Source: an uncultured Oscillospiraceae bacterium (GTDB taxonomy: Bacteria; Bacillota_A; Clostridia; Oscillospirales; Oscillospiraceae). Taken from it: a stretch of DNA of 6,194 nt. Below, one piece after another: positions 340 through 6,194 of this stretch (positions are counted from its first letter, which is position 1; each line of letters starts with the position of its first letter). Location: the NCBI GenBank assembly GCA_944387745.1, contig CALXGD010000010.1:1-6194 (forward strand), in the 5' to 3' direction. The translations under genes were made by a program, and so were the position numbers. The notes beneath the pieces are model-generated. The model was not told the DNA's origin. It saw nothing but the letters and a program-made list of their open reading frames with translations, and searched no databases.

Positions 340-939
340 TCAGCTCCGGCCCCTGGCCAGGGCGTAGCCGCCGCCCGGAAGCTGCACATAGAGGGTTCCA
401 TCCGGCCCCTCCCAGAGCATACAGCCGGCGTACTCCTTCCGATCGGTGTAGAGCTGACTTTCGCTGTCCTCCCCCTCCAGGAACAGCACGCCCAGCTGGC
501 GGCTGTTTTCGGGCAATTCCGACACAACCTCTCCGGTGAGGGAATAGTCGCCTGCGGGGGTGCGAAGGACGGACGATTCCCCTTGCTGTTCCTGCGAGGG
601 GGATGCACTCTCCCCGTCGCTGGGGGCCGCGGGGGCGGAGGGAAGTCCGTTTCCAACGCTCCCCCCGCCAGAGTCCGCCGCGCCGCCCGACATTCCGGCG
701 GAACTCTCCGCCTGGCCGGCGGTGGTGGCGTCGGCGGAGGCCCCGCCGCCGGCTAGATTGCCCATAGTGGGCAGGTGGGTCAGCGCCGCAGCCACCAGAC
801 AGGCGGCGGCCAGGCCGCCGATCAGGGGTTTCCAGCGGGCGAAGAGCAGGACTTTAGCGGGAGGCCGGTACTCCTCCGCCTCTTGAATCAGGTCGTCGTC
901 CACCTGACCGATGGCGTTCAGCAGTTCCTCAGAGGTCAT
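340..939 (-). CDS. Putative anti-sigma factor: single-pass membrane protein coupled to the ECF sigma gene
   Basis: This 199-residue protein has three parts. Residues 1-35 are a short cytoplasmic segment with the pattern LLNAIGQVDDDLIQEA, which I recognise as recurrent in Firmicutes proteins encoded next to ECF sigma genes. Residues 38-56 are a hydrophobic transmembrane helix preceded by Arg35 and Lys37, predicting an N-in, C-out topology. Residues 60-123 are a Gly/Ala/Ser-rich spacer, followed by a small outside domain (124-199) containing DYSLTGEVV, GCMLWEGPDGTLYVQLPGGG and a single Cys173. No zinc-binding HxxxCxxC anti-sigma motif is present. Its ATG overlaps the sigma stop codon (ATGA, 936-939), implying translational coupling and roughly equal production. 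The anti-sigma role is inferred from position and topology, not from a clear domain match. The outside domain may be the sensor; I do not recognise its fold. Confidence 0.72.
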   Translation of the reverse strand: MTSEELLNAIGQVDDDLIQEAEEYRPPAKVLLFARWKPLIGGLAAACLVAAALTHLPTMGNLAGGGASADATTAGQAESSAGMSGGAADSGGGSVGNGLPSAPAAPSDGESASPSQEQQGESSVLRTPAGDYSLTGEVVSELPENSRQLGVLFLEGEDSESQLYTDRKEYAGCMLWEGPDGTLYVQLPGGGYALARGRS

Positions 940-1496
940 ACCGCCACCCCCTCTCGCATCAAAGCCTCCCGCAGCCGCAGGCGGATGCGGTGGAGGCGGG
1001 ATTTCGTCTGACTCTCACTGAGGTGAAAGCGCTTAGCCAGAGTAGAAATGGAATCCAAATACCAGTACCGGCGCAGAAACAGATTCCGGTCCAAGTCGGA
1101 CTGTTCCCGGAGAAAGCGGGAGATGAGGGCGGCGGTCTCCCGTTCCTCCAGGCGTTCCTCCGGCCGCCCAGGTGCGGGGAGGCAGTGCTCCAGCTCCTCC
1201 AGGGCCACCTCCACCTGGGGGCCGCCCCGCTTGGAGGCCCGGCTGTGCCGCCACCGGTCTAAGGACAGATTTCGGGTGATTTTCCCAAAGAAGGCGGACA
1301 GTACGCTGGGGCGCTGGGGAGGCATGGCGTTCCAGGCGTGGAGCCAGGTGTCGTTGACGCACTCCTCCGCGTCCTCCTCTTGCCTTAAAATGTTCCGGGC
1401 AATGGCCCGGCAGAAGGTTCCGTATTTCGTCTCGCTCTCGGCGATGGCCTGCTCCGAGCGGGCCCAGTACAGGTCGATGATCCCTTGATCCTCCAT
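936..1496 (-). CDS. ECF-type RNA polymerase sigma factor (sigma-70 family)
   Basis: This 186-residue protein has normal ECF length and only regions 2 and 4. Region 2 covers about residues 8-85: a DAEECVNDTWLHAWNAMPP core (42-60) for polymerase binding and -10 melting, then FFGKITRNLSLDRWRHSRASKR (69-90), the basic 2.3/2.4 part. A linker with ELEHCLPAPGRPEE leads to region 4 (about 118-180), whose helix-turn-helix is SISTLAKRFHLSESQTKSRL (149-168), which should read the -35 element. The ATG at 1496 follows AGAGGAG by 7 nt. The gene is first in an operon with the overlapping membrane protein, the usual sigma/anti-sigma order. A promoter of ECF type directly upstream matches one in front of the divergent SLH gene, which suggests autoregulation. 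The family is clear; the inducing signal is unknown. Confidence 0.92.
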   Translation of the reverse strand: MEDQGIIDLYWARSEQAIAESETKYGTFCRAIARNILRQEEDAEECVNDTWLHAWNAMPPQRPSVLSAFFGKITRNLSLDRWRHSRASKRGGPQVEVALEELEHCLPAPGRPEERLEERETAALISRFLREQSDLDRNLFLRRYWYLDSISTLAKRFHLSESQTKSRLHRIRLRLREALMREGVAV

Positions 1497-1540
1497 AGCG
1501 GCACTCCTCTCCAGCCGGCGGCGTTTTCTCTATTATAAAA

Positions 1541-1566
1541 GACGCAGGCCGCCGGGAAAAGTTGCG
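1541..1566 (-). promoter_or_regulatory. Predicted ECF promoter of the sigma/anti-sigma operon
   Basis: On the minus strand CGCAAC (1566-1561) and CGTC (1544-1541) are separated by exactly 16 bp. This resembles known ECF promoters, in which an AAC-containing -35 and a CGT-containing -10 are typical. The same two elements with the same spacing occur on the opposite strand in front of the SLH gene. Transcription would begin near 1532-1535, giving a leader of about 35-40 nt. A TATAAT at 1537-1532 lies where transcription would start and has no good -35 partner, so I take it as secondary. Confidence 0.6.
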
Positions 1567-1602
1567 GAGCGTGAGAAAATTTTTAAATTTCTTTTAAAAT
1601 TG

Positions 1603-1628
1603 CGCAACCAAAGCCATTTGTTTTCGTC
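1603..1628 (+). promoter_or_regulatory. Predicted ECF promoter of the SLH exoprotein gene
   Basis: CGCAAC (1603-1608), a 16-bp spacer and CGTC (1625-1628, followed by TA) repeat the architecture of the promoter on the other strand. Transcription starting near 1636 would give an unusually long leader of about 130 nt before the GTG at 1767. The -35 elements of the two promoters form an inverted repeat (GTTGCG at 1561-1566, CGCAAC at 1603-1608) flanking an AT-rich stretch at about 1576-1600. The two promoters therefore sit back to back and fire outward. Confidence 0.6.
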
Positions 1629-1754
1629 TAAGTATATGATAAGATACCCATATCAAAGCGTCGCAGAAGGCCCTGACCGCCCGCCCCTGGGCGGAGCGGG
1701 GGAACGCAGAAACCCAGGAACGCAGCACAAATCTTAGGAAATATAAAAAGAATT

Positions 1755-1760
1755 GGAGGG
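1755..1760 (+). promoter_or_regulatory. Ribosome binding site that selects a GTG start
   Basis: GGAGGG lies 6 nt before GTG at 1767. It decides for the GTG over the in-frame ATG at 1776, which would be 15 nt away and would remove the Lys-Arg that begins the signal peptide. Confidence 0.75.
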
Positions 1761-1766
1761 ATTTTT

Positions 1767-3938
1767 GTGAAACGTATGGTATCTCTGCTTTTGACCGGGG
1801 CTCTAGCCGCCGGCCTGGCTCTGCCCGCCGCCGCGGCGGAGCCCACCCAGGACCAGCGGCTGACTCAGGTCACCCAGGCGGTGAAGGAGGTCCTGGACCT
1901 GGACACCTCGCCCTATGACAACTTCTATGGGGAGTGCTATGACCAGCAGCTGGTGAGCCAGTGGTCCCTGTACTGGGAGGGACCGGAGGGCCGCCTGTCC
2001 GTGGACGCCCTGGAGGACGGCACGGTGATCTGGTACAGCCTGTACCAGAACGAGACGGAGGGGCCGGAGTACGGCCTGCCCGGCTACCCCGGCGGGGACG
2101 CCACCCAGGCCAAGGCCGCCGCCCAGGCCTTTGTGGACAAGGTGCTAGAGCCGGGGCTGGAGACTGCCATTTTAGAGGAATCCAGCAGCTCCGCCCAGCT
2201 GGGCCGGGACGACCTCCGCTTCACCGGAGACATCCTGTTCCACGGCCTGCCCTCCCCCCTGAGCTGCTCCGTGGAGGTGGACCTGGGGAGCGGGCAGGTG
2301 ACCTACTTCTCCCGGGACGTCTCCTATGGCCTCTACCTGGGGGACGTACCCAGCCCCACCCCGGCGGTGGACGCCGGTACGGCGGCGGAGGGCCTGAAAA
2401 GCTCCCTGTCCCTGAAGCTGGAGTATGTGCGCTCCGAGACCAGTGAGAAGCAGGCGGTGCTGCGCTACCTCCCGGACAACCGGGACGAATACTATGTGGA
2501 CGCCCAGACCGGGGCGCTGGTGAACCTGACGGAGCTGGAGGGAAAGCTGCCGGAAGGCGACCTGGGGGCGGGCGCCGGCGCCGACTCCAACGCCAGCACG
2601 AGTGAGAGCGCCCCCAGTGCCTCTGCGGACAGCCTGACCCAGGCGGAGCAGGCGGGGATCCAGAAGCTGGAGGGGGTGCTGTCCCGAGAGGTCCTGGACG
2701 AGAAGCTTCGGGCTGCGGCGGAGTATGGACTGAGCGGATATACCCTGGACTCCGCCTCCTACCGCCTTGTGGAGGCCAGCGAGGACCGGGCGGAACAGGT
2801 GCTGTGTACCCTGCGCTACATCAAGAGGACCGGTGAGGAACTGGCCTCCCGCACCTTTACCGTGGACGCCCGCACCGGGGAAGTGGAGAGCCTGCGCTCC
2901 TCCCTGCCCTGGGACAAGGACCAGACCCCGGCGCTGACCGGGGCGGAGGCCCAGGCCAAGGCGGAGGCTTTCCTGCAAACCTTCTGCCCGGACCGGGCGG
3001 GGACCCTGGCCCTGTACGACGCCCCTGACCCGGAGGAGCAGGTGTGGGCCCAGTACCGCTTCACCTTCGCTCGGCAGGAAAACGGGTATTTCTTCCCCGA
3101 CCACTTCTATGAGGTGGGCATCTCAGCGGAGGACGGCTCCGTGTGCGCCCTGTCCTTCTTCTATGAGGAGGACGTGACCTTTGACAGCCCAGAGGGAATC
3201 GTCTCAGAGCAGGCGGCCCTGGACGCCTGGATGAATACCTACACCGTGACCCTGGGCTATCTCCCCGTGCCCGAAATGCTGGACGAGAAGGACCCAGAGA
3301 CTGCCCCCTACCTCCAGCTGGGGCTGAAGGCCTTCTATGTGCTCAAGCTGGGCTACGGCCTGGAGCGGGAGGGCTACTACTCCGGCGTGGACGCCAAGAC
3401 CGGCGCCCCCATCCTGCGGGATGTGGGCAGCTCCGGCGGCCTGACCTACTCCGACCTGGCGGGCCACTGGGCCCAGAGCACCGTGGAGACCCTGGCCGCC
3501 TACGACGTGGGCTATGAGGGCGGCGTCTTTGCCCCCGCTCAGGCCATGACCCAGTGGGATATGATCGCCCTGTTGTACAGCGTGGAGAGCTACCCCCTGG
3601 ACCCCGCCGCCGCCACAGAGGAGGAGCGGGATGCAGCCTACGCCGCCGCCTACCGCATGGGGGCACTCACTTCGGCGGAGCGCAGCGACAGCGCCCCCCT
3701 CACCCGCAGCGGAGCGGTGAAGCTGCTGCTCAACGCCGAGGGGCTGGGCCATGTGGCCAAAATGTCAAATATTTTCGCCTGCAATTATACAGATGCAGAA
3801 CTGATTGCCGCCCCGGAGGACTGGGGATATGCCTGTCTGGCACAGGGCATCGGCATGACTGGGGACACCTGGGCCGGGGATCGGGTTATCAGCCGGGCTG
3901 AGGCCGCGGTGATGCTCCACAGACTGCTGGCCTGGTAA
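1767..3938 (+). CDS. Secreted YcdB/YcdC-like protein with C-terminal SLH wall anchor
   Basis: This 723-residue protein starts with a Sec signal peptide: MKR, a hydrophobic core and AAAA, with likely cleavage after Ala24. Two related regions follow, about 30-260 and 300-550, joined by a Ser/Ala/Gly linker (266-290). Both contain a Gln/Ala-rich helix (AQAFVDK at 119-125; AEAFLQTF at 399-406) and a VDAxTG turn (VDAQTGALV, VDARTGEVE, VDAKTGAPI), as in YcdB/YcdC repeat proteins, whose biochemical role is unknown. Residues 560-723 contain three degenerate SLH repeats: YSDLAGHWAQSTVETL (561-576), a short second copy near 623-660 with LTRSGAVKLLL, and a third with ISRAEAAVMLHRLL. SLH repeats bind secondary cell-wall polymers, so the protein should sit on the wall. 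The gene is divergent from the ECF sigma operon and has a matching ECF promoter, suggesting it is an output of that sigma factor. No catalytic motif is visible. Confidence 0.85.
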   Translation: MKRMVSLLLTGALAAGLALPAAAAEPTQDQRLTQVTQAVKEVLDLDTSPYDNFYGECYDQQLVSQWSLYWEGPEGRLSVDALEDGTVIWYSLYQNETEGPEYGLPGYPGGDATQAKAAAQAFVDKVLEPGLETAILEESSSSAQLGRDDLRFTGDILFHGLPSPLSCSVEVDLGSGQVTYFSRDVSYGLYLGDVPSPTPAVDAGTAAEGLKSSLSLKLEYVRSETSEKQAVLRYLPDNRDEYYVDAQTGALVNLTELEGKLPEGDLGAGAGADSNASTSESAPSASADSLTQAEQAGIQKLEGVLSREVLDEKLRAAAEYGLSGYTLDSASYRLVEASEDRAEQVLCTLRYIKRTGEELASRTFTVDARTGEVESLRSSLPWDKDQTPALTGAEAQAKAEAFLQTFCPDRAGTLALYDAPDPEEQVWAQYRFTFARQENGYFFPDHFYEVGISAEDGSVCALSFFYEEDVTFDSPEGIVSEQAALDAWMNTYTVTLGYLPVPEMLDEKDPETAPYLQLGLKAFYVLKLGYGLEREGYYSGVDAKTGAPILRDVGSSGGLTYSDLAGHWAQSTVETLAAYDVGYEGGVFAPAQAMTQWDMIALLYSVESYPLDPAAATEEERDAAYAAAYRMGALTSAERSDSAPLTRSGAVKLLLNAEGLGHVAKMSNIFACNYTDAELIAAPEDWGYACLAQGIGMTGDTWAGDRVISRAEAAVMLHRLLAW

Positions 3939-4047: not shown

Positions 4048-5088
4048 TCAGTCATCCATCATCTCAAACAGAGACAGGGGGAGCACATCGGACAACTCCA
4101 TTAGCACGGGGGAGAAGCCGCCCGCCTCCTCCGCCGGGCTGCGCACCGACAGGCGGGGGTCCAGAGTGCCAAGAGGCAGAGATACCACAGAGAGCACGCC
4201 GTTCTTTCGCGGCTCCATGAGCAGAGCCCCGCCGTGGAGGGAGACAATGTGCCGGGCAATGGCCAGGCCCATACCGGCCCCGTCTCTGGGGTCCGGAATC
4301 TGGATCTCCGGCTGCATATCTTGAGCCAGTAGCGCCTCCAGTCCAGCGTCGTCCAGCCCCTCCCCCCGGCTGCCCAGGGTGACGATGGCCCGCCCCTTCC
4401 GGCTGCTCACCGTCAGGGACACCGTCCCTCCGGGGCCTGCCTTGGCACCGTTGGACAGAAGGGTGAGCAACAGCTTCTGGAGCAGATCCGGGTCCCCTGG
4501 GATGAGCAGAGAGGACAAGTCGCTCTGATAGACAAGCTGAATGTCCGCCTCCTTCAGCAGAAAAGCGGCCTCTTGGACCAGATGGCGGCACAGGCCCGCC
4601 AGATCCATGGTCACCGGGTGGAAAGGGACCCCCTCCGGCGTGCCCATCAGCCGGATGAAGTCCAGATTGGACAGCAGGCGGTATGTCCGGCAGAAGCTTC
4701 TGCTGAAGGTGTCCATTCCCCTGCGGGAGGGGCCGGACACCGCCTCAAACTCCAGCATGATGTCCTGGAGCAGGCTGCGCATCTGCCGGATAAAGCCCTC
4801 CAGCTGCTGCTGGGTGAGCGTGGACTGAGGGGCCGGACGGAAGAGGAGCAGCTCCCGCTCCCCGCTGGAGACACGGCTGAACAGATAGACCGAGCCATTG
4901 TGGGCAAAGCTCCCCGAGCCCTCTGGGTCGGCGAAGGGACTGGAGAGAAAGGCTGGTGGCTCCGCCCCCACGGCCAGCTCCGGAAATTGAAGCTGAGCCG
5001 CCTGGTTCAGCCCCTGGATCCGCCCCTGGGCCACCTCAATGGCGCCCTCAGAGAAGCGCTCCAAATAAGAACCCGTTACATCAGACAT
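4048..5088 (-). CDS. Soluble histidine-kinase-like protein (HATPase_c), possibly a pseudokinase
   Basis: This protein has 346 residues, no signal peptide and no transmembrane segment, so it is cytoplasmic. Residues 1-85 form an unrecognised input region. Residues 88-148 are two helices resembling a DHp dimerisation hairpin, ending in FCRTYRLLSNLDFIRLM. Residues 160-306 form a GHKL ATPase domain: N-box LLLTLLSNGAKAG (206-218, Asn213) and glycine-rich G2 box DGAGMGLAIARHIVSLHGG (269-287). Residues 307-346 are an extra tail. Two features are degenerate. There is no histidine anywhere in 88-148, so the phosphoacceptor is missing. The G1 box, usually DxGxG, reads SRGEG (240-244), with Ser in place of the adenine-contacting Asp. 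The ATG at 5088 follows GAGGGAGG by 4 nt. No response regulator gene is adjacent. It may be an atypical kinase, a phosphatase or an ATP-binding regulator; the fold is more certain than the activity. Confidence 0.75.
   Translation of the reverse strand: MSDVTGSYLERFSEGAIEVAQGRIQGLNQAAQLQFPELAVGAEPPAFLSSPFADPEGSGSFAHNGSVYLFSRVSSGERELLLFRPAPQSTLTQQQLEGFIRQMRSLLQDIMLEFEAVSGPSRRGMDTFSRSFCRTYRLLSNLDFIRLMGTPEGVPFHPVTMDLAGLCRHLVQEAAFLLKEADIQLVYQSDLSSLLIPGDPDLLQKLLLTLLSNGAKAGPGGTVSLTVSSRKGRAIVTLGSRGEGLDDAGLEALLAQDMQPEIQIPDPRDGAGMGLAIARHIVSLHGGALLMEPRKNGVLSVVSLPLGTLDPRLSVRSPAEEAGGFSPVLMELSDVLPLSLFEMMDD

Positions 5089-5463: not shown

Positions 5464-6194
<731 letters not shown>

What the first reader, a model, noticed from the sequence alone, without database searches (positions are those of the whole stretch)
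1541..1628. Identical ECF promoters back to back predict an autoregulated sigma factor and its target
CGCAAC-N16-CGTCT occurs on both strands of one 270-bp intergenic region, once facing the ECF sigma operon and once facing the SLH exoprotein gene, with the same hexamer, spacer length and -10 core. Chance agreement of two motifs at identical spacing on both strands is unlikely. It gives a concrete recognition sequence for this uncharacterised sigma factor and ties the wall protein to it.
Basis: partly seen in the sequence, partly recalled or inferred. Interest (0 to 1): 0.7.

Follow-up and report, generated by a model that had tools for sequence, protein, structure and literature searches.

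The report
Self-switching stress regulator and its targets
Two matching DNA on-switches, back to back between a stress-regulator gene and a surface-protein gene, look real: related gut bacteria keep the same switch in front of the regulator and of several envelope genes, so it probably turns itself and a small set of surface genes on together.

Summary
Confirmed and extended. GCAAC-N16-CGTC(T) stands on both strands of the 270-bp gap (minus 1541-1566, plus 1603-1628; 0 of 200 shuffles give two). No whole genome is held for the window, so relatives were used. The 4 relatives found with the same divergent sigma/SLH pair all keep both sites at N16; 18 of 18 core columns are invariant, 79 of 252 others. 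In 46 protein-selected sigma orthologs the exact motif peaks at N16 (21; at most 2 at any other spacer 8-25). It also precedes DUF4349 lipoproteins (18 of 30) and serpins (18 of 30), 0 at other spacers; 82 of 119 hits in 64 genomes precede the sigma or a few envelope families. A matrix trained outside the window's clade ranks the two window sites first and second. Best reading: an autoregulated ECF sigma with a probable membrane anti-sigma controls an envelope regulon; the SLH/DUF4901 gene is a clade-specific member. Distant SLH relatives carry GGAAC instead (14 of 30 at N16, 0 GCAAC), suggesting rewiring. In 26 of 46 relatives the sigma promoter overlaps a terminator-like hairpin. No transcription data.

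The parts
1541..1566 (-). Predicted ECF promoter of the sigma/anti-sigma operon: -35 CGCAAC at 1561-1566, 16-bp spacer, -10 CGTC at 1541-1544
   Evidence: second-best of all positions with a matrix trained outside the clade, 34.2 bits against -4.9 for the third; all 9 core columns (GCAAC, CGTC) invariant in 5 genomes
1603..1628 (+). Predicted ECF promoter of the DUF4901/SLH gene: -35 CGCAAC at 1603-1608, 16-bp spacer, -10 CGTC at 1625-1628
   Evidence: best-scoring position of the window, 39.9 bits; all 9 core columns invariant in 5 genomes
1567..1602 (.). A/T-rich stretch between the two -35 elements, possibly a shared upstream (UP-like) element; the GCAAC cores are 38 bp apart in 4 genomes and 40 bp in G001
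   Evidence: Sequence, alignment A1, positions; the UP role is inferred
936..1496 (-). ECF sigma factor, 186 aa
   Evidence: TIGR02937 64.4 bits (cut-off 42.9), Sigma70_r2 40.9 bits (cut-off 24); the region 4 match, 18.9 bits, is below its cut-off of 24.1
340..939 (-). Probable anti-sigma factor, 199 aa, overlapping the sigma stop: short N-terminus, one hydrophobic segment near residues 38-58, Ser/Gly-rich linker, variable outer part
   Evidence: No Pfam match at E 0.01 and no NCBIfam match; found by tblastn (E 1e-3) in 22 of 82 sigma loci, 0-9 nt from the sigma match in 21 and 125 nt in L022; hydropathy; 13 translations; anti-sigma role inferred from position and layout
1767..3938 (+). 723-aa DUF4901 (YcdB/YcdC) protein with PepSY match at cut-off and one C-terminal SLH repeat at cut-off; predicted secreted target
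   Evidence: relatives; signal peptide read by eye
1755..1760 (+). Ribosome-binding site GGAGGG of the SLH gene
   Evidence: Sequence, conserved in alignment A1

Best explanation
Two divergent promoters of one ECF sigma factor. The sigma gene and its membrane-bound anti-sigma form one operon transcribed from the minus-strand site, so active sigma raises both (autoregulation with built-in braking). The same holoenzyme fires the plus-strand site to make the DUF4901/SLH protein. In relatives the same promoter drives a small envelope regulon: DUF4349 lipoprotein, serpin lipoprotein, a sulfatase-domain protein that I take to be LtaS-like (recalled resemblance), and small membrane or Ig-like proteins. 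Shown: sites, spacing, conservation, placement in genomes. Inferred: that this sigma reads them, that the 199-aa protein inhibits it, and that the trigger is envelope stress.
For: Two exact sites, 0 of 200 shuffles. Both kept in 4 of 4 relatives with the divergent pair; 18 of 18 core columns invariant against 79 of 252 others of 1497-1766 (p 3.3e-9; 79 of 170 ungapped columns, p 3.7e-6; columns and close kin are not independent). 21 of 46 protein-selected sigma orthologs have the exact motif at N16 on the sense strand; other spacers 8-25 give 0 to 2. DUF4349 18 of 30 and serpin 18 of 30 at N16, 0 at the other 17 spacers. 82 of 119 hits in 64 genomes precede the sigma gene or listed families. 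Regulon-type sites occur in 33 of 47 genomes with the sigma and 3 of 17 without, p 0.0004 (G454 counted as having it because of a split copy; otherwise 32 of 46 and 4 of 18). An out-of-clade matrix ranks the two window sites first and second; positions not used for selection also fit (14.6 and 13.6; training median 16.6; unclassified median -18.4).
Against: No transcription data and no genome for the window. The motif is not over-abundant by number: the pattern read backwards is as common or commoner in most genomes (control columns), so the case rests on placement and spacing. 25 of 46 sigma orthologs lack the exact motif (relaxed form: 29 at N16, 11 at N17). 3 genomes without a sigma ortholog (G422, G434, G450) still carry regulon-type sites: assembly gaps or a paralogue. 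Sigma genes of 49-61% identity carry the motif in places. TATAAT lies 3 nt beyond the minus -10, TATGAT 6 nt beyond the plus -10, and a weak housekeeping-like site is at 1571-1600 plus (9 of 12; 0.3 expected).
Confidence: 0.82

Rival explanations
1. The sites are ECF promoters, but a paralogous ECF sigma (relatives hold several) reads some or all of them.
For: Many family genomes have several sigma matches at E 1e-40; the motif is found before some sigma genes of only 49-61% identity; 3 of 17 genomes lacking the ortholog keep sites.
Against: Sites before non-sigma targets go with presence of this ortholog (33 of 47 against 3 of 17; not corrected for kinship), and the motif lies before this sigma itself in 21 of 46 exactly.
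Confidence: 0.12
2. The genes are expressed mainly from housekeeping promoters, and the GCAAC/CGTC pairs are incidental.
For: TATAAT after the minus site in 4 of 5 aligned genomes, TATGAT after the plus site in 5 of 6 rows, TATGGT in G450; one weak sigma-70-like site at 1571-1600 plus, 9 of 12 matches, 0.3 expected.
Against: The scan pairs neither TATAAT nor TATGAT with a -35; the TATAAT is absent in G001, while both GCAAC-N16-CGTC cores are invariant and the motif recurs in the genus.
Confidence: 0.05
3. Chance agreement or repeated sequence.
For: Short motif; of 73 distinct unclassified sites in fetched loci most look like background.
Against: 0 of 200 shuffles, spacing peak, conservation; spacers and flanks differ between the two sites, so they are not copies.
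Confidence: 0.01

Closest known systems
Bacillus subtilis SigW/SigM-type cell-envelope ECF systems
   Same: Two-box promoter with ..AAC -35, 16-17 bp spacer and CGT-type -10; SigW TGAAAC-N16,17-CGTA is given in PMC2375139 (passages). SigM controls cell-wall genes (PMC11081497, passages). Predicted envelope regulon here too.
   Different: -35 is GCAAC, not TGAAAC; predicted regulon has serpins, DUF4349 and DUF4901/SLH proteins; the sigma scores far below the cut-offs of the NCBIfam SigW, SigM, SigX and SigZ models.
Autoregulated ECF sigma / anti-sigma operons in general
   Same: Most ECF sigmas are transcribed from a promoter that they recognise themselves (PMC3817407, passages).
   Different: A second, divergent copy of the promoter faces a surface-protein gene; the putative anti-sigma matches no family searched.
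RsiV-like anti-sigma factors (recalled, no call)
   Same: Short cytoplasmic N-terminus before one membrane span.
   Different: No match to any Pfam or NCBIfam model at E 0.01.

Membership tests
ECF sigma factors (group IV sigma-70) | Sigma-70 regions 2 and 4 only, about 160-200 aa | tested here: met
   TIGR02937 64.4 bits over 42.9; Sigma70_r2 over cut-off; region 4 match below its Pfam cut-off
ECF sigma factors (group IV sigma-70) | Target promoters with ..AAC -35, about 16 bp spacer, CGT-type -10 | tested here: met
   (sequence only, no transcription)
Autoregulated ECF system | Same motif before the sigma gene, conserved among orthologs | tested here: met
   21 of 46 exact, 29 of 46 relaxed at N16; 25 of 46 lack the exact form
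Autoregulated ECF system | Expression depends on the sigma itself | not testable with these tools
   No expression data
ECF operon with cognate anti-sigma | Membrane anti-sigma directly downstream | tested here: inconclusive
   Overlapping 199-aa protein with one hydrophobic segment, similar N-termini in 13 translations by eye; no family match; binding untested
NCBIfam SigW, SigM, SigX, SigZ models | Curated equivalog cut-off | tested here: not met
   25.7, 24.4, 24.1, 24.0 bits against cut-offs of 209, 190, 194, 168.65
Published ECF group numbers | Assignment to a phylogenetic group | not tested
   No group models in the libraries used
S-layer/SLH wall proteins | SLH repeats, commonly three (recalled) | tested here: inconclusive
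   One repeat exactly at the Pfam cut-off

The most novel reading that the evidence does not exclude
Two unusual regulatory arrangements. (1) Rewiring: in other genomes of the family the DUF4901/SLH gene often carries a GGAAC-type ECF promoter, and in the window's clade, where the gene lies beside this sigma (or did, as G450 suggests), the -35 is GCAAC, the sigma's own type, so a surface gene has changed master by about one base of its -35. (2) In many sister genomes the sigma's own promoter is laid over the intrinsic terminator of the gene before it: the hairpin loop (GCAA or GAAA, GNRA-like) is the -35, the 3' arm and T-run are the spacer, and CGTC follows the T-run, so termination, read-through and autoactivation would share one 40-bp element.
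Probability: 0.5. Interest if true: 0.65.

Novelty: new member of a known kind. Interest (0 to 1): 0.5.

Why it matters
It gives a defined recognition sequence and a predicted regulon (itself, serpin, DUF4349, sulfatase-domain protein, DUF4901/SLH) for an uncharacterised ECF sigma of Oscillospiraceae, and puts serpin-type protease inhibitors under a predicted envelope-stress switch. Searches of the open-access library for ECF sigma factor + serpin + Clostridia, DUF4349 + sigma factor and GCAAC + CGTC + ECF sigma factor each found 0 papers; most subscription papers are not held. For the nested terminator, 'embedded in the terminator' found 0; of the 19 papers of a broader search 15 were seen, as a listing only. 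The GGAAC/GCAAC contrast makes promoter rewiring between ECF sigmas directly testable.

Tried and rejected
Own-genome scan: impossible, no genome held. Distant sigma homologs as a conservation test: 65 of 79 loci lack the exact motif, so the test was moved to the genus. The first gene caller called many sites 'inside' genes because of spurious high-GC frames; replaced by start/RBS-based and similarity-based calls, whose target classes were named after seeing the data. Solved structures: none for the sigma at E 0.001; for the SLH protein only a de novo design at E 0.078. C. difficile start-site paper: ECF consensus sequences are said to remain to be identified there (PMC7438776, passages). Paper searches were seen as listings apart from the passages cited. 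Structure prediction was not run: it would not decide the promoter question. No ECF group number was assigned.

Controls. The pattern read backwards is of other composition and often more frequent than the motif; the spacer scans served as null instead. Relaxed patterns: DUF4349 20 at N16 and 0 elsewhere; serpin 19 at N16, and 1, 1, 3, 1 at N9, N10, N11, N17. The first column count left out 1741-1766 (65 of 226); one search covers the whole gap. Redundancy: some promoter sequences are near-identical among close relatives (for example L355, L359, L363), so counts are of loci or genomes, not independent events. The serpin and DUF4349 sets are the 30 matches each that came with loci, not all listed rows. 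One search left out L410 (no proper upstream region) and L168 (window's clade). The loose hairpin test flags 21 of 32 distinct sigma sites but also 10 of 29 DUF4349 and 3 of 21 serpin sites; the stricter test was run on sigma orthologs only.

Full report
What was claimed and what is there. Both sites are exactly there: minus 1541-1566 and plus 1603-1628. With spacers of 15-17 allowed, the window is expected to hold 0.03 matches and 0 of 200 shuffles hold two. The gap is 270 bp.

The genes. The 186-aa protein is an ECF sigma factor (TIGR02937 64.4 bits, cut-off 42.9; Sigma70_r2 over cut-off, region 4 below cut-off). The 199-aa gene 340-939 overlaps its stop, has no family match and one hydrophobic segment. 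It is found by tblastn at E 1e-3 in 22 of 82 sigma loci; 13 translations listed share by eye an N-terminus of the type MTxExLLxAxGxxDDDLIxEAE. I take it as the anti-sigma; that is inferred. The 723-aa protein has DUF4901 (54.2 bits), a PepSY match at cut-off and one SLH repeat at cut-off.

Conservation of the pair. No genome is held for the window. The closest named relative, an uncultured Oscillospiraceae bacterium (L001; 76% sigma identity), keeps both sites at N16. Its genus has 64 genomes here; 7 hold the SLH protein at E 1e-8. Four of these (G001, G410, G431, G452) have the sigma divergent to it, and all four keep both sites at N16. The distance between the two GCAAC cores is 38 bp in the window and three relatives and 40 bp in G001 (positions). 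G450 has the SLH gene with the site but without the sigma next to it. In G413 and G438 (41-44% identity) the SLH gene lacks GCAAC. In the five paired gaps all 18 core columns are invariant, against 79 of 252 other columns of 1497-1766 (p 3.3e-9), or 79 of 170 without gaps (p 3.7e-6). G410, G431 and G452 are close kin, so the p values overstate.

Autoregulation in the genus. 46 of 64 genomes have a sigma ortholog at E 1e-65; a split copy in G454 makes 47. In the 300 bp before the 46 orthologs, chosen by protein alone, the exact motif stands on the sense strand in 21 at N16; other spacers from 8 to 25 give 2 (N13), 1 (N22) or 0. On the antisense strand it stands in 4, all at N16, matching the four paired genomes. 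Relaxed to G(C/A)AAC and CGT the counts are 29 at N16 and 11 at N17. So 25 of 46 lack the exact form.

Regulon. An exact search of 8 relatives gave 57 sites, and a genus-wide search with GCAACY-N15-CGTCT gave 119 sites in 50 of 64 genomes. By number alone this is no excess: the pattern read backwards is as common or commoner in most genomes. The placement is telling. By similarity of the downstream gene to eight chosen examples, 82 of 119 sites precede: DUF4349 lipoproteins (26), serpin lipoproteins (21), the sigma (18), a sulfatase-domain protein (6), DUF4901/SLH (4), a 300-aa protein without Pfam match (4), proteins of a Big_14 kind (3; of two examples one passes Pfam's cut-off) (families). 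The remaining 37 include probable further targets and chance hits. These classes were named after seeing the data. As an unselected test, DUF4349 and serpin genes were found by Pfam model and the 30 of each that came with loci examined: 18 and 18 have the exact motif at N16 and 0 at the other 17 spacers. Genomes with the sigma have a regulon-type site in 33 of 47, without it in 3 of 17 (p 0.0004, not corrected for kinship; many assemblies are in pieces; with G454 counted as lacking it, 32 of 46 and 4 of 18).

A test that leaves the window out. A matrix from 79 sites outside the window's clade, scanned over the window, gives 39.9 bits (plus site) and 34.2 bits (minus site); the next position has -4.9 and the best of 60 random windows 0.6. 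Since GRAAC and CGTC were required for training, the two sites were scored again on positions not used for selection: 14.6 and 13.6, against a leave-one-out median of 16.6 for the training sites and -18.4 for 73 unclassified sites, 6 of which score as high. Classified sites share a T-run before the -10, then CGTCTATA and a TAGAG-like stretch; the consensus of unclassified sites does not.

Mechanism. Most likely, a signal at the envelope frees sigma from the membrane anti-sigma; the holoenzyme then fires both divergent promoters, possibly sharing the A/T-rich stretch between them, raising sigma, anti-sigma and the surface protein together. Shown: sites, spacing, conservation and company. Inferred: sigma identity, inhibition and signal. 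Most ECF sigmas autoregulate (PMC3817407, passages seen); SigW of B. subtilis reads TGAAAC-N16,17-CGTA (PMC2375139, passages).

Rewiring. SLH-protein relatives were found in 71 of 400 family genomes at E 1e-60 (G001 included; 31-58% identity). In 30 upstream regions (28 of the 29 other loci, plus L172 and L173; identities about 39-54%) GCAAC-N-CGTC occurs in 0 at any spacer 8-25, but GGAAC-CGTC occurs in 14 at N16, 6 at N17 and 1 at N9, and no sigma ortholog is seen in the flanks held. The gene family thus often looks ECF-driven, and the window's clade uses this sigma's -35. That the GGAAC sites belong to another sigma is inferred.

Nested terminator. In 26 of 46 sigma orthologs the promoter-like site overlaps a hairpin of at least 9 pairs: the loop holds the -35, the 3' arm and T-run fill the spacer. 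Of 32 distinct sigma sites folded, 12 fold at -20 kcal/mol or below; a looser test there flags 21 of 32, but also 10 of 29 DUF4349 and 3 of 21 serpin sites. In the clearer cases a gene read in the same direction ends just before, for example one ending in a rubredoxin-like sequence (many frames in that output are spurious). Of 257 terminator-like hairpins in L001-L079, 7 have CGTC within 6 nt of the T-run, and 5 of those 7 are, by sequence, the sigma sites. In the window and its clade, with a divergent neighbour, no strong hairpin covers the site, and no terminator-like site is found in 1440-1780.

Against the reading. There is no expression evidence; three genomes without the ortholog keep sites; sigma genes of 49-61% identity bear the motif in places; TATAAT- and TATGAT-like sequences lie just downstream, and one weak housekeeping-like site is at 1571-1600. 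I set the probability that both sites are promoters of this sigma at 0.82. The system is a new member of a known kind; the rewiring and the nested terminator are the newer parts.

Noticed in passing
L190, L239, L243, L196 (upstream of sigma) and others, 26 of 46 sigma orthologs: Sigma promoter superimposed on an intrinsic-terminator-like hairpin: GCAA/GAAA loop is the -35, T-run then CGTC.
   Followed up: partly
L389-L417, L172 (upstream of DUF4901/SLH genes): Distant relatives of the SLH gene often carry GGAAC-N16/17-CGTC instead of GCAAC, suggesting control by another ECF sigma.
   Followed up: partly
window, within 1653-1740: About 74 nt of the SLH leader have no counterpart in the five aligned relatives (alignment A1).
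   Followed up: no
window 1532-1537 (minus) and 1635-1640 (plus): TATAAT and TATGAT just downstream of the two -10 elements; TATGATA-like sequence is conserved on the SLH side. Could be start-region sequence or housekeeping -10 elements; a consensus scan pairs neither with a -35.
   Followed up: partly
L246 (G047) and L247 (G350): A hairpin-nested copy of the motif lies about 1.4 kb before the sigma gene rather than directly before it.
   Followed up: no
L091, L296 (G004, G444): High-scoring motif before related hydrophobic, transporter-like proteins (by eye; L091 has no Pfam match), a possible further target.
   Followed up: no
window 4048-5088 (minus): Protein with histidine-kinase-type ATPase domain and no response regulator seen among the window's proteins scanned, beside the GAPDH gene at 5524.
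   Followed up: no
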